Made by a program: the position numbers and the translations under genes. Below are positions 57-59,534 of a DNA stretch of 60,236 bases, piece by piece. This DNA is from a virus, in the IMG/VR virus record IMGVR_UViG_3300032224_001080, positions 1 to 60,236 of that record; one strand, written 5' to 3'. The notes beneath the pieces were generated by a model. It made no database searches. It had not been told where the DNA came from and was given only the letters and a program-made list of their open reading frames with translations. The number at the start of each line of letters is the position of its first letter. The first letter of the stretch is position 1.

Positions 57-803
57 ATGAATAAATTCGGAGTTATTAAAACCAAATTATTAAATAAATT
101 AACTGAATCTTACGCTAAAGAAAATAAGGCTGAGATTAAAAATATTTTATCAACAATTAAAGAAAACAAAGATTTTAAAGAAATGTATTTGTTTTATGAA
201 GAAATTGAAAGTAAAACTATTTCAGATAAAGAAACTGCAAAATTATATGTCGAAGGTTTAAGTACATATTTTGGTCAACCAATAGGAAATTGGAATAATT
301 TAAATATGTTTTGTGAATCTTTAAACAAAAGATTAGGTGATGAAGAAGTAACAACAAATGAACTATATAAGTCTTTAGATATATTATCTGAAAAAGATTC
401 ATTATCAAATATTGAAAAGAAAGTTATTGCTAAAAAGAAATTAGTTGAACATTTAACAACTAAAAAAGAAATTACAGAATCAAAAGAAACCACATTAGTC
501 CCTAATGAAACTTTATTAAATGCTGTGTTGGCTAATAATTTCAATGTTTTATATTCTAATACATTATCTGAATCGCAAAAAGAAGAGTTAAAAAATATTT
601 TATCGATTTCTTATGACGATTTAATTACTAAAAGTAATGAATTGGCTGAATCAGTTATTAAACAAGTATCTACACTTTTAAGTGAATCAAACGATACGGA
701 TTTATCCAATAAATTGAAAGCTGTAAAAGATGAGGTTACTCAAATGTACCCATCAAGATATAACTACTACAGATTAAACGAATTAAAAAATGGACTTAAC
801 TAA
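57..803 (+). CDS. Hypothetical protein in the prohead-core (gp67/gp68) position
   Basis: This 248-residue protein is Lys/Glu-rich, mostly helical in appearance, with no Cys and no transmembrane segment. I do not recognise the family. It starts 2 nt after the upstream stop, in an A-rich context without a Shine-Dalgarno sequence. It lies between a probable portal end and the gp21-like protease, where T4 carries its small prohead core genes. Several L/I-x-E tripeptides (LTE, ITE, LSE) occur, which is the cleavage consensus of T4 gp21, so a processed core role is plausible but inferred. The 3' end overlaps the convergent bS21 gene by 8 bp inside a hairpin that probably terminates both transcripts. 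Confidence 0.75.
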   Translation: MNKFGVIKTKLLNKLTESYAKENKAEIKNILSTIKENKDFKEMYLFYEEIESKTISDKETAKLYVEGLSTYFGQPIGNWNNLNMFCESLNKRLGDEEVTTNELYKSLDILSEKDSLSNIEKKVIAKKKLVEHLTTKKEITESKETTLVPNETLLNAVLANNFNVLYSNTLSESQKEELKNILSISYDDLITKSNELAESVIKQVSTLLSESNDTDLSNKLKAVKDEVTQMYPSRYNYYRLNELKNGLN

Positions 804-811
804 GTCCATTT
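788..811. terminator. Bidirectional intrinsic terminator between convergent genes
   Basis: An 11-bp perfect inverted repeat (AAATGGACTTA / TAAGTCCATTT) with a 2-nt centre is flanked by A-runs on the left and T-runs on the right, so it can terminate in both directions. It overlaps the last codons of both genes. Confidence 0.8.
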
Positions 812-987
812 CTTTTTTGTTGTATATAAACCGCTTTTAATTTTTGAGTTCTTTTTTTAACTGAGGGTTTAACAAATACTTGTCTGTTTCTCAATTCTTG
901 AACTTGTTTAACTTTTTGAACTTTACTTTTATAAGTTCTAAGTGCAGTCTCAATACTTTTTTCTTTTGATAAGTCTACTATAATCAT
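796..987 (-). CDS. rpsU: Ribosomal protein bS21 (phage-encoded)
   Basis: This 63-residue basic protein matches bS21 of Bacteroidota along its whole length. It has the N-terminal SIETALRTYKSK helix (family form S-I-E-x-A-L-x-x-Y/F-K), the ELRNRQ-F-KPS centre, and a Lys/Arg/Gln-rich C-terminal helix. bS21 sits on the small subunit near the 3' end of 16S rRNA. In Bacteroidota it helps bury the anti-Shine-Dalgarno sequence; I recall a tyrosine near residue 54 taking part, and residue 54 here is Tyr. The gene stands alone on the minus strand inside the head cluster. Two promoter types precede it: a host-like TATATTTG element and the phage late octamer 4 nt from the ATG. It probably modifies host ribosomes during infection; that role is inferred. 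Confidence 0.9.
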   Translation of the reverse strand: MIIVDLSKEKSIETALRTYKSKVQKVKQVQELRNRQVFVKPSVKKRTQKLKAVYIQQKRNGLS

Positions 988-991
988 ATAT

Positions 992-999
992 TATAAATA
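992..999 (-). promoter_or_regulatory. Late promoter octamer TATTTATA before bS21
   Basis: TATTTATA read on the minus strand ends 4 nt before the bS21 ATG. Confidence 0.55.
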
Positions 1000-1004
1000 T
1001 AATA

Positions 1005-1037
1005 CAAATATATGAAATTATTTTTGGTAATCCCAAG
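1005..1037 (-). promoter_or_regulatory. Host-type (Bacteroidota) promoter before bS21
   Basis: On the minus strand CTTG, a 21-nt spacer and TATATTTG match the Bacteroidota -33 TTTG / -7 TAnnTTTG pattern. The -7 element ends 17 nt before the ATG. Confidence 0.5.
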
Positions 1038-1089: not shown

Positions 1090-1515
1090 ATGAAAACAGG
1101 TAAGTATATCCCATTAGGGACTTACAATGATGTAAAGATCGGTTATGGTACCGTAGATTTTAAAAATCTTAAAACCATTTATTTGAAACTAAATTCATGG
1201 GTACAACCTGAAAATGAGACTGATGATTTTGATCATATGATCCATAAGTCAAGACGAAAAGTAAAAGAAATAATTTATAATCTTAAAAATCCTTTTTTTA
1301 AACAACAATCTATTGTTGATTTAGATATTCGAACAAAAGGAATTAAATTAGAAAAGAGATCTTTTATGAACTTGGAAATCACTTTATATGTTGATAAACA
1401 GTTTGATGTTAAATCAAAAGAAATTAAAAATAACATTAAAGATATTTTAAGTTTTGTTATAGAAGACGGACTTTCTGATAAAAAACTATTCAATTTCTAC
1501 AAATCTAAAAAATAA
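1090..1515 (+). CDS. Hypothetical protein, second gene in the prohead-core position
   Basis: This 141-residue protein is not recognised. It has a mixed alpha/beta pattern: an N-terminal strand region around residues 5-40, a basic stretch near 55-60, and a Lys/Asp-rich C-terminal helix. It has no signal peptide or transmembrane segment. It lies directly before the gp21-like protease, so by T4 order it could be a core or head-assembly protein. The start at 1090 is preceded by an A-rich stretch with no Shine-Dalgarno sequence; a late-type octamer lies 39 nt upstream. Confidence 0.7.
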   Translation: MKTGKYIPLGTYNDVKIGYGTVDFKNLKTIYLKLNSWVQPENETDDFDHMIHKSRRKVKEIIYNLKNPFFKQQSIVDLDIRTKGIKLEKRSFMNLEITLYVDKQFDVKSKEIKNNIKDILSFVIEDGLSDKKLFNFYKSKK

Positions 1516-1553: not shown

Positions 1554-2237
1554 ATGAAGATATTAGGACCCAAAGAACTTGGAACAGGAATTTTAATAGA
1601 ATACGACGCAGGACACGTATCTCCAGAAGAGAATAAAAAAATTATACAGGAAATGAAGGGTGTGGACTTCTCTGAAGACCTAATTCTTTATGCTGTTTTA
1701 CAAAAATACGACACTCCAAATAAGAACGGAAGGATATATCCTGAAATGTTACTTAAGAGAGAAAACGAAAAATATCAATCACTAATTAAAAAGGGTGGAG
1801 CATTAAATGAATTAAATCACCCTTCATCTTCACTAATCGATTTAGATCGAGTATCACATTCAATTTTAGAAACTTGGTGGGACGGTAGAATCCTTATGGG
1901 TAAAATCAAATTATTCACTTCTCCAGGGTGGAAGAAAATGGGTATCGTTTCAACCAAAGGAGACCAAGCTGCAATGTTATTAATGAACGGAGCAACACTT
2001 GGTATCTCTTCACGTGGTGTAGGATCACTTAAACAAGTTAAAGGTGAAAACATTGTACAAGATGATTTCGAATTAGTTTGTTTTGATTTAGTATCATCAC
2101 CATCAACTCCAGGTGCTTACATTTTTAAAGACCCATCAGAAAGAGACCAATATCAAGAGGCGGAAATTAAAAAACCAACCCTTGATAGTAGAATGTCTAA
2201 ACTTATGGGCAATTTAGATACATTTCTATCTAAATAA
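1554..2237 (+). CDS. gp21: Prohead core protease, T4 gp21-like
   Basis: The 227-residue protein has the features of the T4 gp21 / herpesvirus-like prohead serine protease family. A conserved NGRIYP segment (58-63) is followed by the ELNHPSS histidine block with His89, the LGISSRG serine block with Ser152/Ser153, and a CFDLVSSPSTPGA block near 176-188. The size is close to T4 gp21 (about 212 residues). It directly precedes the scaffold and capsid genes, as in T4. Its role is to degrade the scaffold and trim capsid proteins after L/I-x-E sites in the prohead. A late octamer lies 16 nt upstream. Confidence 0.9.
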   Translation: MKILGPKELGTGILIEYDAGHVSPEENKKIIQEMKGVDFSEDLILYAVLQKYDTPNKNGRIYPEMLLKRENEKYQSLIKKGGALNELNHPSSSLIDLDRVSHSILETWWDGRILMGKIKLFTSPGWKKMGIVSTKGDQAAMLLMNGATLGISSRGVGSLKQVKGENIVQDDFELVCFDLVSSPSTPGAYIFKDPSERDQYQEAEIKKPTLDSRMSKLMGNLDTFLSK

Positions 2238-2326: not shown

Positions 2327-3607
2327 ATGAGCGAAAAATCAATTTTAGAACAAGCGTTACTTCAAGTACAAAATCTTGAAGAAGCAGTAAAGCAAAATGC
2401 AAAAGGTATACTTGCTTCAACAATGAAGGAAGAACTTAAAGATTTGCTTAAAGAATCATTGGAAGAAGAGGAGAACGATGATGTTATGGAACAACCAGAA
2501 ACTGAAACTGATCCTGAAGGAGAGGAAGAAAAAGATGTAACAGCTGACGACGAAGAAACAGACGATGAGTCTGAAGATGACGTTGATACAGATGTTGATA
2601 CAGATACAGACCTCGATAATACAGATGACTCAACAGATGACGTTGATGCTGACGTAGATATGGATTTAGACGCAGAAACCGATATGGATACTGACGCTGA
2701 ATCTTTAGAAGACGAAGGTACTGACGACGAAGACGTTATGGATATGACAAATGCTTCAGATGATGAAGTACTAAAAGTATTCAAGGCTATGAAACCAGAA
2801 GATGGTATTGTAGTTAAAAAAGACGGTAACAATGTTGAATTTGGTGACGGTGAAGATGAATACATTATCAAATTAGATGGTGAAGATTCTGACATGAGTA
2901 CCGGAATGGACATGGGAGCTGACGTTGATTCTGATGTAGATTCTGACGTTGATATGGATGACATGGATACGGATACAGATGTGGACACAGATGTAGATAC
3001 AGATGTAGATGAAGATTGGAATGAAGAAGAAATGCCTTCTGAAAACAATGAAGAAACAATCTATGAAATCGAATTAGACGAAGAAGACGAGGTTGAAGAA
3101 CCTAAAAAAGTTGAAGCTACTGAAGCTGCACGTACAAAATCAAACCCTCATGGAAACAAGAACGGTATGAAAAGAGCTGGTTTACCAAGCAAAAAAATGT
3201 ATAAGGCAGGTTCATCTATCAACGAAGAAGTTGAAACATTGAAAAAACAAAACGCTGAATATAAAAAGGCATTAGTATTATTCAAGGATAAACTAAATGA
3301 AGTTGCGGTATTCAATGCAAACTTAGCTTACGCTACACGTTTGTTCACTGAACATTCAACTACAAAACAAGAGAAATTGAACATATTAAAGAGATTTGAT
3401 ACAGTTTCTACTATGAATGAAGCTAAGTCTTTATTCTCAACAATCAAAACTGAATTAGGTTCAAAAACTACGGTTACCGAATCAGTTGCGAAAAAAATCT
3501 CTAACACTCCATCAACATCTTCTTCTACAGAGGTATTATCTGAGTCAAAAGCTTATGAAAATCCTCAATTCAGTAGAATCAAAGAAATGATGAGAAAAAT
3601 AAAATAA
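2327..3607 (+). CDS. gp22: Prohead scaffolding protein, gp22-like, with long acidic repeats
   Basis: The 426-residue protein lies between the protease and the major capsid protein, as T4 gp22 does. The N-terminal 45 residues are helical. Residues about 45-150 and 195-265 are extremely acidic Asp/Thr/Val/Met repeats of the DVDTDVDTD type. Residues about 300-370 look like coiled coil (NEEVETLKKQNAEYKK, ending with LNILKRFDT), resembling the C-terminal part of gp22-like scaffolds. The last residues, NPQFSRIKEMMRKIK, share a short helix motif with the ends of three other proteins in this window. The acidic stretch is unusually long for T4 gp22 (about 270 residues) and accounts for much of the extra length. 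Role is inferred from position and composition. Confidence 0.8.
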   Translation: MSEKSILEQALLQVQNLEEAVKQNAKGILASTMKEELKDLLKESLEEEENDDVMEQPETETDPEGEEEKDVTADDEETDDESEDDVDTDVDTDTDLDNTDDSTDDVDADVDMDLDAETDMDTDAESLEDEGTDDEDVMDMTNASDDEVLKVFKAMKPEDGIVVKKDGNNVEFGDGEDEYIIKLDGEDSDMSTGMDMGADVDSDVDSDVDMDDMDTDTDVDTDVDTDVDEDWNEEEMPSENNEETIYEIELDEEDEVEEPKKVEATEAARTKSNPHGNKNGMKRAGLPSKKMYKAGSSINEEVETLKKQNAEYKKALVLFKDKLNEVAVFNANLAYATRLFTEHSTTKQEKLNILKRFDTVSTMNEAKSLFSTIKTELGSKTTVTESVAKKISNTPSTSSSTEVLSESKAYENPQFSRIKEMMRKIK

Positions 3608-3631: not shown

Positions 3632-5398
3632 ATGGGAGCATTATTAGAATCAGGTATGGTTGGTAACATCGGTTTAAAACACCTTAGAGTTATCAAGGAA
3701 GATACCATCAAAAAATGGGACGAATTAGGCTTTTTAGAAGGTCTTGACGGTCACCAAAAAGATAACATCGCACAATTATATGAAAACCAAGCGTCTTATT
3801 TAATCAACGAAGCGGCAGTAGCTGATGCGTCTGGTTCATTCGAGACAGTAGTTTTCCCTATCATTCGTCGTGTGTTCTCTAAATTATTAGCTAACGACAT
3901 CGTGTCTGTACAAGCTATGAACTTACCAATTGGTAAATTATTCTTCTTTATTCCTAAAATTCAGGAAAGAGATGCAGACGGTCACTATTCACCATATGTT
4001 GGTGTTAATGGTCAAGCAACAGATAACCACAGTGCTTCTGCGGGCTATCCAGCGGGTAAAAGAAGTTTATACGATCGTTTCTACGAAGCTAGTGATGATT
4101 TAGATCAAGGTCTTTTTGATTATTCAAAAGGTTCTTTTTCTGTTGAATCATTGGCAGTTGCAGGTTTTGCAACTTTCTCTAACGGTGCAGTTACTGTTAG
4201 TGGTAGTGCAATTGCAACTGGTACAACAAAATCAAATATTATCTTAGCTTTAACTGGTTTCACATCAGCAGGTGCGGGTAAATTGAAAGGACCAGACGGT
4301 AATGAAATGGATTCTGAAGAATTCTTAGCTTCATTACAAGTGTTCTCTACAGATGCTAACTTATTAGCTTTCTTAGGTGCAACTACAAGTACTTCTTTAC
4401 CAATCAATATCGTTACTCAAAAGTACGGTAAAGGTATGGTTGAATATGGTGCTAAAACAACTAACGCAACACAAAATTATTATGATATTTGTGATGCTGA
4501 TAATGTTATTTATGTTCAAGTAGATTTACAAAAATACAGTGCAACTGCAGGTTTTGTTGATTACGTTGTTACAGGTTCAACATTGGATGATCAAGAATTC
4601 AACGCATCTTACCGTAAGTATGATACTTTGGAATTTGAAGAGCAAATCGGTGAAGTATCTTTTGATTTAGAGTCAGTAACAGTTTCTGTAACTGAAAGAA
4701 AATTAAGAGCTAGCTGGTCTCCAGAATTAGCACAAGATGTTAGTGCATTCCACAACATCGATGCTGAAGCTGAATTAACAGCTTTATTATCAGAGCAAAT
4801 CGCTGCTGAGGTTGACCGTGAAATCTTACGTGACTTACGTAAAGGTGCAGCATGGAAAGCTAAATGGGATTACAATGGATGGAAATACGGTGGTTCTGGA
4901 AACTCAACTTTACAAGGTTACACTCAAAAAGATTGGAACCAAACATTGGTGACTAAGATCAACCAAATTTCTGCTCAAATCCACAAAACTACGTTAAGAG
5001 GTGGTGCTAACTGGATCGTTGTTTCTTCAGAAGTTTCTGCAGTATTCGATGACTTAGAGTATTTCCACGTTTCTAACGCAGAACCAGAACAAGATCAATA
5101 TAACATGGGTATCGAGAAAATTGGTACAGTAGGTGGACGTTACCAAGTGTATCGTGATCCTTACTTCCCAGCAAACAAGATCTTGATTGGTCATAAAGGT
5201 AAGTCTTTGTTAGATGCAGGTTATGTATACGCACCATATGTGCCATTACAATTAACTCCTACAATGTACAATCCATTCAACATGACTCCAATCAAAGGTA
5301 TCATGACACGTTACGCAAAGAAAATGGTAAACAACCGTTACTTTGGTATCATCGATGTTCAAGGTATCCAAGTGTTTGGTTTAGATACATTAAGATAA
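3632..5398 (+). CDS. gp23: Major capsid protein, T4 gp23-like
   Basis: The 588-residue protein occupies the gp23 position. Its N-terminal region contains LINE-AAVADASG, with an I-x-E site after Glu60, close to the known gp23 processing position (after Glu65 in T4). I therefore predict a mature shell protein starting at Ala61. The block FPIIRRVFSKLLANDIVSVQAM and the C-terminal TPIKGIMTRYAKKMVNNRYFG are typical of gp23. A region of low similarity around residues 165-320 may be a surface insertion. It is followed by a strong terminator, consistent with the end of a highly expressed late unit. Base use is richer in G and C than the neighbours, as usual for capsid genes. Confidence 0.95.
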   Translation: MGALLESGMVGNIGLKHLRVIKEDTIKKWDELGFLEGLDGHQKDNIAQLYENQASYLINEAAVADASGSFETVVFPIIRRVFSKLLANDIVSVQAMNLPIGKLFFFIPKIQERDADGHYSPYVGVNGQATDNHSASAGYPAGKRSLYDRFYEASDDLDQGLFDYSKGSFSVESLAVAGFATFSNGAVTVSGSAIATGTTKSNIILALTGFTSAGAGKLKGPDGNEMDSEEFLASLQVFSTDANLLAFLGATTSTSLPINIVTQKYGKGMVEYGAKTTNATQNYYDICDADNVIYVQVDLQKYSATAGFVDYVVTGSTLDDQEFNASYRKYDTLEFEEQIGEVSFDLESVTVSVTERKLRASWSPELAQDVSAFHNIDAEAELTALLSEQIAAEVDREILRDLRKGAAWKAKWDYNGWKYGGSGNSTLQGYTQKDWNQTLVTKINQISAQIHKTTLRGGANWIVVSSEVSAVFDDLEYFHVSNAEPEQDQYNMGIEKIGTVGGRYQVYRDPYFPANKILIGHKGKSLLDAGYVYAPYVPLQLTPTMYNPFNMTPIKGIMTRYAKKMVNNRYFGIIDVQGIQVFGLDTLR

Positions 5399-5420
5399 TC
5401 TTAATAGGAATATCAAAAAA

Positions 5421-5445
5421 ACCCTCGAGAAATCGGGGGTTTTTT
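5421..5445 (+). terminator. Intrinsic terminator after the capsid gene
   Basis: ACCCTCGA and TCGGGGGT form an 8-bp stem with one U-G pair around a GAAA tetraloop, followed by five T. Confidence 0.9.
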
Positions 5446-6815: not shown

Positions 6816-7577
6816 TTATAATTTAGTATCTTTTATAAATTTTTTGTGAGAATCTTTATATGATTTTTGTGTTTCATCATATACATCTTTGGTGTATTGC
6901 CAATTCCAATATAAGTCATTGTTTGTTTTAAAACCGTAAAATTCGTGAATTTTCTTTTGTAAATCATTTACATTAGAACCATTAAAGTTTTGACCTGTAC
7001 ATATGAAACCTGTCTCTATATCTTTAACAAGATTTGATTCTCCTAATGTCTCGTGTCTATTCTCAATCCAAGTTAATCTCTCAATTAGGTTTTGGTAAAA
7101 CATATTTGTTTGTCCCCATCTAATTGAACTGAAAAATACAACTGCATCAGATTCAAATAATTCTTTACTTATTTTCCAAAGTTCGTCCTTTGGGTTATTG
7201 ATACTAGCCCAACATCTATGGTGACCACTTGGGTTTTTATCATTATCTTTTAATTTAGCCTTTAAGACTCCACAACCATTACCGTCTTTTCTTGATACGT
7301 TACCCTCACAAGGAACTATATTTAGTTCAGAAACATCTAATAACGTTGATTTATCACCTAATTCTTGGTTAAGGTATATTGCAATCATTTTAGACTTTGG
7401 TATATCAATATCATTTTTGTCCCAATTATGTCTATTAGAACAACTTAATAGTAAAACTTTTTTCTTCTTTTTAAGAACAGCCAATGTTTTTTTTAAAGAT
7501 TTCCAAGCATCAGATTGTACCATCTCCTCAGAAATCATCATTTGTTTAATTCTTTGTATGTTCTCTTGTAAGTTCAT
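6816..7577 (-). CDS. Flavodoxin-fold NAD(P)H/FMN reductase-like protein with N-terminal tag
   Basis: The 253-residue protein has a flavodoxin-like Rossmann core. A first strand and P-loop-like VLLLSCSNRH is at 41-50, followed by LLDVSELNIVPCEGN. A cysteine cluster (CEGN, CGV, CWAS) resembles iron-sulfur flavoproteins. Then come ESDAVVFFSSIRWGQTNMFYQN, the usual FMN-contact loop of NADPH-dependent FMN reductases, and ETGFICTGQNFNGS. The first 18 residues (MNLQENIQRIKQMMISEE) are an added helix ending in I-S-E, the gp21 cleavage consensus, and resemble the scaffold C-terminus. The ATG directly abuts the upstream stop (TAGATG). It may be packaged in the virion; that is a hypothesis. The enzyme class is fairly safe, its substrate unknown. 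Confidence 0.8.
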   Translation of the reverse strand: MNLQENIQRIKQMMISEEMVQSDAWKSLKKTLAVLKKKKKVLLLSCSNRHNWDKNDIDIPKSKMIAIYLNQELGDKSTLLDVSELNIVPCEGNVSRKDGNGCGVLKAKLKDNDKNPSGHHRCWASINNPKDELWKISKELFESDAVVFFSSIRWGQTNMFYQNLIERLTWIENRHETLGESNLVKDIETGFICTGQNFNGSNVNDLQKKIHEFYGFKTNNDLYWNWQYTKDVYDETQKSYKDSHKKFIKDTKL

Positions 7578-13771: not shown

Positions 13772-14473
13772 TTATTCTAAAAACCCACCTAAAATACCGT
13801 CATATAGTTTTTTATAACGTTTCAGGGAGACTCTAATCTCTTTTGTTGATAAGGAGGTCATTTCTCGTAAAGAGAGTAAAATGAGGTTCTTATTGAATTT
13901 GTTACCGTCACCTACTTGAAATATCTTATCAAAATTACTAAAGATTTCAAGTAGTGCGTAACCTAACTTTCTCTCATTATCAGATAGATTTTTCTCTTTT
14001 TCCACAAAATTTTCTAAATCAATTGTAAGTTTAGTAATAACCGAACTATAATCAATTACAAATTCATCAATTACATATGATAAGTCTTTACTATCTTCAA
14101 AATCTGAAGATATATCATCATACGATACTTGTCTATTTTGTTCTTTTGTATCTTTCTGTATTGCACCCATAAGGTAGTTTTTACAGATAGTTCCAAAGTA
14201 TGAATATGCTTTAGTATTTTTTGTGTGATCAAACTTGTTGATCTTAGTTATAAGGAAAGACATTGTATCGGTATGAATTTCTTCAAATTCCATATCTTTT
14301 CTATAAAGTTTATAACGTCGAATAATTGATTCGACCATTATAATTAGGGGTTCACGTAAATATTCATTGAATATCTTATTTTTTTCTGTTTCGTCAGTAC
14401 TTTCTAAGTAATTGACTACCGCCTTCTCTTGATCCTCCCCAAAATATATTTTTTGGGTTCTTGGTCTTGGCAT
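13772..14473 (-). CDS. gp55: Late-transcription sigma factor, gp55-like
   Basis: The 233-residue protein has a sigma-70 region-2-like core. Residues about 76-106 read ITKINKFDHTKNTKAYSYFGTICKNYLMG, matching the F-D-x-x-K/N-x-x-x-x-x-x-Y pattern of core-binding and -10-recognition helices. It is followed by KDTKEQNRQVSYDD. The length is close to T4 gp55 (185) and other phage late sigma factors. T4 gp55 directs RNA polymerase to the TATAAATA late promoter with the sliding clamp. Here the likely target is the TATTTAT(A/T) octamer found before many genes. It lies downstream of two glycosyltransferases in one tight operon; its start shares 1 nt with the upstream stop. Confidence 0.8.
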   Translation of the reverse strand: MPRPRTQKIYFGEDQEKAVVNYLESTDETEKNKIFNEYLREPLIIMVESIIRRYKLYRKDMEFEEIHTDTMSFLITKINKFDHTKNTKAYSYFGTICKNYLMGAIQKDTKEQNRQVSYDDISSDFEDSKDLSYVIDEFVIDYSSVITKLTIDLENFVEKEKNLSDNERKLGYALLEIFSNFDKIFQVGDGNKFNKNLILLSLREMTSLSTKEIRVSLKRYKKLYDGILGGFLE

Positions 14474-58691: not shown

Positions 58692-59534
58692 ATGTCTACA
58701 TTTGACGCAGTACTAAAACAGTACGAACAAAACAAAAACGCCACAAGTGGCAATTCAAACAAGATGTCTTCAGAAGACAGATTAAAACGTTATTTCACAA
58801 CCGTATTACCTAAAGGTTCTAAAGGTGAAGAAAGACGTATCCGTATTTTACCTACAAAAGATGGTTCTTCACCATTTGTAGAGGTTAAATTCCACGAAGT
58901 TCAAGTGGACGGTAAATGGGTAAAATTATATGATCCAGCACAAGAAGGAAAACGTTCTCCATTAAACGAGGTTTGTGAAGGATTAATGATGAGTGGTGTA
59001 GATTCTGATAAAGAATTAGCACGTAACTATCGTTCTCGTAAGTTTTATATCGTTAAGGTGATCGATCGTGATCATGAAGCGGATGGAGTTAAATTTTGGA
59101 GATTTAAACATAATCATAAGGGTGATGGTGTTATTGATAAAATCTTCCCAATCTTCCGTAATAAAGGAGATGTTACCAATCCTGAAAATGGTCGTGACTT
59201 AATCTTGTCATTAACATTGACTAAAGCGGGAACAGGTAAAGAATATACTGTTATCAATTCAGTATTAAACGACGACCCAAGTGCATTACATACTGATGCT
59301 GATGTTGCGAAAACATGGTTGGATGATGAATTAACTTGGTCAGATGTATACTCTAGAAAGAGTGAAGATTATTTGGAAATGGTTGCAAGAGGTGAGGTTC
59401 CACGTTGGGACACTGCAAGTAGCAAATGGGTTTCTAATTTAACAACAGAAGAAACTATCGGAGCACCGAAGTCTTCAACTCCTGTTGTTGACCCACAAGA
59501 TGATGCTGAAGTGGATGGCGACTTGCCATTTTAA
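58692..59534 (+). CDS. gp32: Single-stranded DNA-binding protein, gp32-like
   Basis: The 280-residue protein resembles T4 gp32 (301). A basic N-terminus (LKRYFTTVLPKGSKGEERRIRILPTKDG) leads to an OB-fold core with ARNYRSRKFYIVKVIDR and KFWRFKHNHKGDGVIDKIF, then LILSLTLTKAGTGKEYTVINSV. The C-terminal tail is acidic and ends in DGDLPF, like the D-D-I-P-F tip of bacterial SSB. The zinc site of T4 gp32 (one His, three Cys) is absent; only one Cys remains. It probably coats single-stranded DNA for the polymerase and UvsX. No late octamer precedes it, so it is probably early or middle. Confidence 0.9.
   Translation: MSTFDAVLKQYEQNKNATSGNSNKMSSEDRLKRYFTTVLPKGSKGEERRIRILPTKDGSSPFVEVKFHEVQVDGKWVKLYDPAQEGKRSPLNEVCEGLMMSGVDSDKELARNYRSRKFYIVKVIDRDHEADGVKFWRFKHNHKGDGVIDKIFPIFRNKGDVTNPENGRDLILSLTLTKAGTGKEYTVINSVLNDDPSALHTDADVAKTWLDDELTWSDVYSRKSEDYLEMVARGEVPRWDTASSKWVSNLTTEETIGAPKSSTPVVDPQDDAEVDGDLPF

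What the first reader, a model, noticed from the sequence alone, without database searches (positions are those of the whole stretch)
796..1037. Phage-encoded Bacteroidota-type ribosomal protein bS21 with both host-type and late-type promoters
The 63-residue protein matches bS21 along its length and keeps a Tyr at residue 54. Phage bS21 genes are known, but in Bacteroidota bS21 helps hide the anti-Shine-Dalgarno sequence, so a phage copy could reset which mRNAs are translated. Phage genes here have no Shine-Dalgarno sequences. The gene has a CTTG-N21-TATATTTG element plus a late octamer, allowing expression throughout infection. It stands alone, inverted, inside the head cluster.
Basis: partly seen in the sequence, partly recalled or inferred. 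Interest (0 to 1): 0.75.

Follow-up and report, generated by a model that had tools for sequence, protein, structure and literature searches.

The report
Phage-borne ribosomal protein bS21, dual promoters
A large phage of Bacteroidota carries its own copy of a ribosome protein, which is already known, but its switches look new: one host-style promoter, one late phage promoter that seems to start the message exactly at the protein's first codon, and a shared stop signal that also writes the protein's tail.

Summary
Window 796-987 (minus) encodes a 63-aa bS21 with Tyr54, preceded by CTTG-N21-TATATTTG and the octamer TATTTATA. The gene, its inverted place in the head cluster, Tyr54 and late transcription are already published for freshwater Bacteroidetes jumbo phages (Chen 2022, PMC9723584).

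Four points go beyond that paper.
(1) TATTTATA, the reverse complement of T4's TATAAATA, is the most enriched upstream 8-mer here and in three relatives; the phage encodes a probable gp55-like late sigma (13772-14473). In one 335-kb relative 24 of 64 octamers end 3-5 nt before ATG (0.45 expected). Flavobacterium RNA polymerase starts 4-5 nt after its -7 element, so many late mRNAs, bS21's included, should be leaderless (inferred; no start sites mapped).
(2) bS21 is one of only two of 421 genes there with both promoter types.
(3) Host rpsU usually has a strong autoregulatory Shine-Dalgarno (57/70); phage copies never do (0/80).
(4) A bidirectional terminator covers both convergent stop codons and encodes Asn-Gly-Leu at both protein ends, explaining a clade-conserved tail that the paper tied to ribosome substitution.

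"Resetting" of translation is untested; the kept Tyr54 argues for keeping the anti-SD hidden.

The parts
796..987 (-). bS21 coding sequence, 63 aa, Tyr54 kept, ends NGLS
   Evidence: PF01165 44.9 bits; alignment to 7jil bS21; median dN/dS 0.16 among relatives
992..999 (-). late octamer TATTTATA, 4 nt before the ATG; predicted leaderless start on the A of ATG (987)
   Evidence: genome-wide enrichment and 3-5 nt spacing peak; host polymerase starts 4-5 nt after its -7 octamer (PMC6847099); kept in relatives
1005..1012 (-). host-type -7 element TATATTTG, 17 nt before the ATG (predicted leader 12-13 nt)
   Evidence: kept in 45 of 95 distinct upstreams
1034..1037 (-). -33-like CTTG, 21 nt before the -7 element
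   Evidence: sequence; only partly conserved
785..814 (.). bidirectional intrinsic terminator over the stop codons of bS21 and of gene 57-803; its arms encode N-G-L in both proteins
   Evidence: -13.2 kcal/mol, z -6.2; terminator scan on both strands; conserved with compensatory synonymous changes
57..803 (+). convergent gene of unknown function, ends KNGLN, shares the terminator
   Evidence: no Pfam or PHROG match
1090..1515 (+). divergent neighbour of unknown function
   Evidence: kept also in a relative without bS21 (L183)
1554..2237 (+). prohead protease (head cluster context), octamer 16 nt before ATG
   Evidence: PF03420 1.5e-21
3632..5398 (+). major capsid protein, Gp23 type (head cluster context)
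   Evidence: PF07068 1.8e-72
13772..14473 (-). probable gp55-like late sigma factor, candidate reader of TATTTATA
   Evidence: phrog_234 late sigma 1.2e-4; near-identical relative matches T4 gp55 7d7c 1.1e-3; weak profile and fold support

Best explanation
This is a phage copy of the Bacteroidota ribosomal protein bS21. It most likely replaces the host protein on the 30S subunit during infection while keeping the anti-Shine-Dalgarno tail hidden (Tyr54). It is made from two promoters: a host-type one giving a transcript with a short leader, and a late one (TATTTATA, probably read by the phage's gp55-like sigma) whose transcript should begin at the AUG itself. Unlike host rpsU, the gene carries no strong Shine-Dalgarno, so it should escape the feedback that limits host bS21; by filling bS21-free ribosomes it should also shut off host rpsU translation, which would make the replacement one-way. 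The message ends at a terminator shared with the convergent gene. Shown by sequence: protein identity, Tyr54, both promoter elements, lack of SD, terminator. Inferred: incorporation into ribosomes, leaderless start, which sigma reads the octamer, escape from feedback, one-way replacement.
For: bS21 identity and Tyr54. Purifying selection. Late transcription of close relatives (PMC9723584). Both promoters conserved and rarely combined elsewhere. Octamer enrichment and the 3-5 nt peak with an almost empty 0-2 nt zone, together with the Flavobacterium start-site distance and the published leaderless signature. Same bS21 gene with the octamer at larger distances in other relatives. Strong SD in 57 of 70 host rpsU loci against 0 of 80 phage copies, and SD-driven autoregulation of F. 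johnsoniae rpsU by ribosomes lacking bS21. A phage bS21 can enter E. coli ribosomes (PMC6375957).
Against: No 5' ends, no infection data and no ribosome data for this phage. Octamers 3 nt from the ATG sit slightly closer than the host 4-5 nt distance. The gp55 assignment is weak by profile search. About half of related bS21 upstreams lack a clear host-type -7 element. The only tested phage bS21 made E. coli ribosomes nearly inactive, so simple replacement may not be neutral.
Confidence: 0.6

Rival explanations
1. Specialised-ribosome reset (first reader, and Chen et al. 2022): the divergent N-terminal helix of the phage bS21 makes host ribosomes prefer phage mRNAs over host mRNAs.
For: Many phage-invariant substitutions that hosts rarely have, for example Lys10 for Glu, Thr18 for Arg/Lys, Gln28 and Gln30; expression with late structural genes.
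Against: Tyr54 and the C-terminal half that hide the anti-SD are kept. Neither host nor phage genes use SD, so the obvious selectivity signal is missing.
Confidence: 0.25
2. TATTTATA next to the ATG is not a promoter but an A/T-rich translation-initiation element, so bS21 late mRNA is leadered from elsewhere.
For: Bacteroidota initiation favours A-rich, unstructured upstream sequence (PMC6847099); no start site has been mapped.
Against: The same octamer also occurs at 10-27 nt, 0-2 nt is nearly empty, and in immuto-like relatives 10-25 nt dominates. The same bS21 gene carries it at 4, 15-18 or 23-24 nt in different relatives. T4's octamer is recovered by the same method, and a gp55-like gene is present.
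Confidence: 0.2
3. Supply only: the phage adds bS21 to restore or boost ribosome stocks late in infection, with no regulatory meaning in losing the SD.
For: bS21 is loosely bound and exchangeable; late expression; clear similarity to host bS21.
Against: Many phage-invariant substitutions that hosts lack suggest more than a spare copy.
Confidence: 0.2

Closest known systems
bS21 phages of freshwater Bacteroidetes (Chen et al. 2022, PMC9723584)
   Same: bS21 inverted inside the terminase/portal/protease/capsid region, Tyr54, jumbo T4-like genomes of similar GC, late transcription
   Different: That paper reports no promoters, leaderless prediction, SD loss or terminator, and reads the conserved C-terminus as functional for ribosome substitution; here the NGL tail is explained by the shared terminator
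Autoregulated host rpsU of Flavobacterium johnsoniae (McNutt et al. 2023, PMC9976891)
   Same: Same protein family, Tyr54 and C-terminal anti-SD pocket residues
   Different: The phage gene lacks the extended SD through which host bS21 is autoregulated (0 of 80 against 57 of 70)
T4 late promoters and gp55 (PMC2988020, PMC7892883)
   Same: 8-bp A/T octamer at the -10 position, no consistent -35 element, gp55-like sigma, use by structural genes
   Different: Sense strand reads TATTTATA rather than TATAAATA; spacing to ATG peaks at 3-5 nt instead of 14-28 nt
Pelagiphage HTVC008M bS21 (Mizuno et al. 2019, PMC6375957)
   Same: Phage-encoded bS21; that one was shown to enter E. coli ribosomes
   Different: Proteobacterial type and host; not the Bacteroidota type with Tyr54

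Membership tests
Ribosomal protein bS21, Bacteroidia type | Match to PF01165 above the curated cut-off over the whole domain | tested here: met
   44.9 bits against 27, profile 2-52 of 55
Ribosomal protein bS21, Bacteroidia type | Tyr (or another aromatic) at position 54 | tested here: met
   Tyr54 aligned to 7jil; Tyr in 35 of 35 distinct phage sequences
Ribosomal protein bS21, Bacteroidia type | Incorporation into 30S subunits | not testable with these tools
   Needs experiment
bS21 phage clades of Chen et al. 2022 | bS21 on the strand opposite to the head genes, within a few genes of protease and capsid | tested here: met
   Window; terminase and portal just upstream in relative G001, off the left edge of the window
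bS21 phage clades of Chen et al. 2022 | TerL phylogeny within clades a-e | not tested
   TerL is not in the window
Autoregulated rpsU | Extended SD with strong pairing to the 16S tail | tested here: not met
   Phage upstream about +0.8 kcal/mol; 0 of 80 phage copies below -8, hosts 57 of 70
T4-type late transcription | Strand-specific 8-bp A/T octamer upstream of late genes | tested here: met
   Most enriched upstream 8-mer in four genomes; shuffles
T4-type late transcription | Octamer reads TATAAATA on the sense strand | tested here: not met
   Sense strand reads TATTTATA; T4 control gives TATAAATA
T4-type late transcription | gp55-family sigma encoded | tested here: inconclusive
   phrog_234 1.2e-4 and gp55 1.1e-3, but profile 0.05 and fold matches below significance
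Bacteroidota housekeeping promoter | -7 element TAHHTTTG and a -33 TTG 19-21 nt upstream | tested here: met
   TATATTTG and CTTG-N21 in the window; class enrichment in G001; -33 only partly kept in relatives
Leaderless gene (TA signal about 10-12 bp before the start codon) | -10-like element placed so that transcription starts on the start codon | tested here: met
   Octamer at -12 to -5 of the ATG; signature from PMC3160421
Leaderless gene (TA signal about 10-12 bp before the start codon) | Mapped 5' end at the AUG | not testable with these tools
   Needs 5'-end mapping

The most novel reading that the evidence does not exclude
In this phage lineage a large share of late mRNAs begin at the AUG, made from TATTTATA by a gp55-like sigma in hosts whose own mRNAs are nearly all leadered, and the phage bS21 tunes the host 30S subunit to initiate on such leaderless messages. 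Octamers 3-5 nt from ATG are commoner in bS21-bearing loci (108 of 265) than in bS21-lacking loci (18 of 143), but this follows phylogeny and is not significant within clades.
Probability: 0.15. Interest if true: 0.85.

Novelty: new member of a known kind. Interest (0 to 1): 0.5.

Why it matters
bS21 is the commonest phage ribosomal protein, and why phages carry it is open. The regulatory anatomy gives concrete predictions: escape from the rpsU feedback loop, shut-off of host bS21, and leaderless late messages in a phylum whose mRNAs are leadered. It also weakens one published argument: the clade-conserved NGL tail of phage bS21 is explained by a shared terminator and need not reflect ribosome function. 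The cultured Flavobacterium phage immuto carries the same octamer and a homologous sigma, so the late-promoter part can be tested now.

Tried and rejected
AlphaFold of the sigma from a single sequence was poor (pLDDT 50) and discarded; with 19 sequences it reached 76. The idea that bS21 presence goes with leaderless architecture was tested on bS21-bearing and bS21-lacking relatives: strong overall (p about 1e-9) but not within clades (p 0.47 and 0.38), so treated as confounded. Lys27 in place of Gly was first taken as a phage signature; about a quarter of sampled hosts also lack Gly there, so it is not used. A TTTGGAATATTC-type dyad as an early-promoter motif showed no clear enrichment. A tblastn of the 1090-1515 protein against named phages gave nothing. 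Which neighbour is the bS21_CN gene of Chen et al. could not be settled. Chance was rejected for the octamer by shuffles.

Full report
What is there. The window is a 60,236-bp viral record of 31% GC with T4-like head genes: protease 1554-2237 and Gp23 capsid protein 3632-5398. The ORF at 796-987 on the minus strand is a 63-residue bS21 (PF01165, 44.9 bits against a cut-off of 27). Its best solved relatives are bS21 chains including F. johnsoniae 7jil, and Tyr54 is aligned. Related genes occur in at least 129 viral stretches, and pairwise dN/dS has a median of 0.16.

What is already known. Chen et al. 2022 (PMC9723584) described this arrangement: bS21 on the reverse strand within the terminase, portal, protease and capsid region of jumbo phages of freshwater Bacteroidetes, with Tyr54 or another aromatic residue kept and transcription together with late structural genes. 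The paper's text contains no mention of promoters, sigma factors or leaderless messages, nor of a terminator.

The two promoters. Upstream on the minus strand lie CTTG (1034-1037), 21 nt, TATATTTG (1005-1012), 5 nt, TATTTATA (992-999), 4 nt, ATG. In 95 distinct upstreams from relatives, 45 keep a TAHHTTTG element 16-20 nt before the ATG (1.4% in shuffles), 90 have an octamer with at most one mismatch within 27 nt, and 34 have both the -7 element and an octamer at 3-6 nt. The -33 CTTG is kept in only part of them, but host promoters also show a weak -33 (PMC6847099). In the 335-kb relative G001 only 2 of 421 genes carry both types, and bS21 is one of them.

The octamer as a late promoter. TATTTATA is the most enriched 8-mer upstream of genes in the window and in three relatives. 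Its reverse complement, which is T4's own late octamer, is much rarer in the sense orientation. In T4 the same analysis returns TATAAATA. The cultured Flavobacterium phage immuto also shows TATTTATA. This phage encodes a gp55-like sigma at 13772-14473 (phrog_234 late sigma; a near-identical relative matches T4 gp55). A homologue in immuto is annotated only as hypothetical. The gp55 assignment is probable, not certain: the profile search was weak, and the predicted fold matched mostly sigma factors without reaching significance. A library search found no paper that reports TATTTATA as a phage late promoter.

Leaderless prediction. In G001, 64 octamers lie within 60 nt of a start codon (8.6 in shuffles); 24 lie 3-5 nt from the ATG (0.45 in shuffles, maximum 2) and none at 0-2 nt. 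Across many relatives the 3-4 nt peak and the nearly empty 0-2 nt zone recur, followed by a broad tail from 10 nt outward. In T4 the spacing is 14-28 nt. Flavobacterium RNA polymerase starts 4-5 nt after its -7 element, and 87% of the F. johnsoniae transcripts analysed have leaders longer than 10 nt (PMC6847099). An octamer ending 4 nt before the ATG should therefore start the message on the A of the AUG. A -10-like signal about 10-12 bp before the start codon is the published signature of leaderless genes (PMC3160421). For bS21 the start codon is well fixed because Met1 aligns with host bS21. The same gene in other relatives has the octamer at about 15-18 or 23-24 nt, which fits a promoter better than a translation signal. 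No 5' ends have been measured, so this remains an inference.

Escape from host control. F. johnsoniae bS21 synthesis is autoregulated: its strong Shine-Dalgarno is read best by ribosomes that lack bS21 (PMC9976891). Here 57 of 70 rpsU loci sampled from the phylum have anti-SD pairing below -8 kcal/mol, against 0 of 80 phage copies. Phage genes in general show no SD enrichment. So the phage gene should be outside the loop. If its product occupies ribosomes and hides the anti-SD, it should also repress host rpsU. That consequence is inferred.

Terminator and protein tail. A 13-bp hairpin at 785-814 (-13.2 kcal/mol, z -6.2) followed by T-rich tails on both strands covers the stop codons of bS21 and of the convergent gene 57-803. 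Because it is a near-palindrome in frame for both genes, both proteins end in N-G-L plus one residue. Among 74 distinct versions, bS21 ends in NGL in 45 of 49 with a hairpin below -8 kcal/mol and in 0 of 25 without one. Two arm positions change together (T-A to C-G, and T-A to A-T); both are third codon positions and synonymous, AAT/AAC and GGT/GGA. Chen et al. suggested that the clade-conserved C-termini matter for ribosome substitution; the terminator explains at least the NGL part without that. The convergent gene keeps NGL in seven cases without the hairpin, so the bS21 arm may be the derived one.

What it does. The best reading is replacement of host bS21 with anti-SD occlusion kept, fed by two promoters and free of feedback. 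Whether mRNA choice changes is open. One published phage bS21 entered E. coli ribosomes but left them almost inactive in a heterologous test (PMC6375957). In E. coli, ribosomes lacking proteins such as bS1 and bS21 favour leaderless mRNAs (review PMC12186496). A link between phage bS21 and leaderless late messages is therefore attractive but unproven. The association across loci is strong overall and absent within clades.

Limits. All close relatives are metagenomic, the host of this phage is unknown, gene starts were called as longest ORFs, and related sequences in the pooled counts are not independent; the single-genome G001 test avoids that last problem. The host rpsU sample covers a broad phylum, and only about a fifth of those proteins carry Tyr54.

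Noticed in passing
L095:14427-15236 (G001 214427-215236); similar gene in G002: Relatives encode a second, full sigma-70-type factor (regions 2 and 4, phrog_351 1.2e-50) besides the gp55-like one; not seen in the window, which is a fragment.
   Followed up: partly
L194:28174-28872 (Flavobacterium phage immuto, immuto26A_153): Annotated as hypothetical, this cultured-phage protein is a homologue (30% identity) of the window's gp55-like sigma; immuto also uses TATTTATA upstream of 21 genes.
   Followed up: partly
L196 (Rhodothermus phage RM378): The most enriched upstream 8-mer is TTATTTAA rather than T4's TATAAATA, possibly a related late octamer.
   Followed up: no
L321, L334, L336, L337: A few immuto-like contigs carry divergent bS21-like genes (27-41% identity) without the NGL tail, perhaps separate acquisitions.
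   Followed up: no
L183, about 7459-7552: A relative keeps both bS21 neighbours but has only about 95 bp between them and no bS21; its octamers still include two 3 nt from ATG.
   Followed up: partly
window 1020-1036 and relatives: A CCAAAAA block upstream of bS21 is conserved even where the host-type -7 element is lost, at varying distance from the octamer; unexplained.
   Followed up: partly
window 5416-5445: Strong terminator-like hairpin just after the major capsid gene.
   Followed up: no
window 2327-3607: 426-aa ORF with a long acidic Asp/Glu/Thr-rich repeat between protease and capsid, in the usual place of a scaffold; no family match.
   Followed up: no
window 58692-59534: gp32-like single-strand DNA binding protein (PF08804 2.9e-14).
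   Followed up: no
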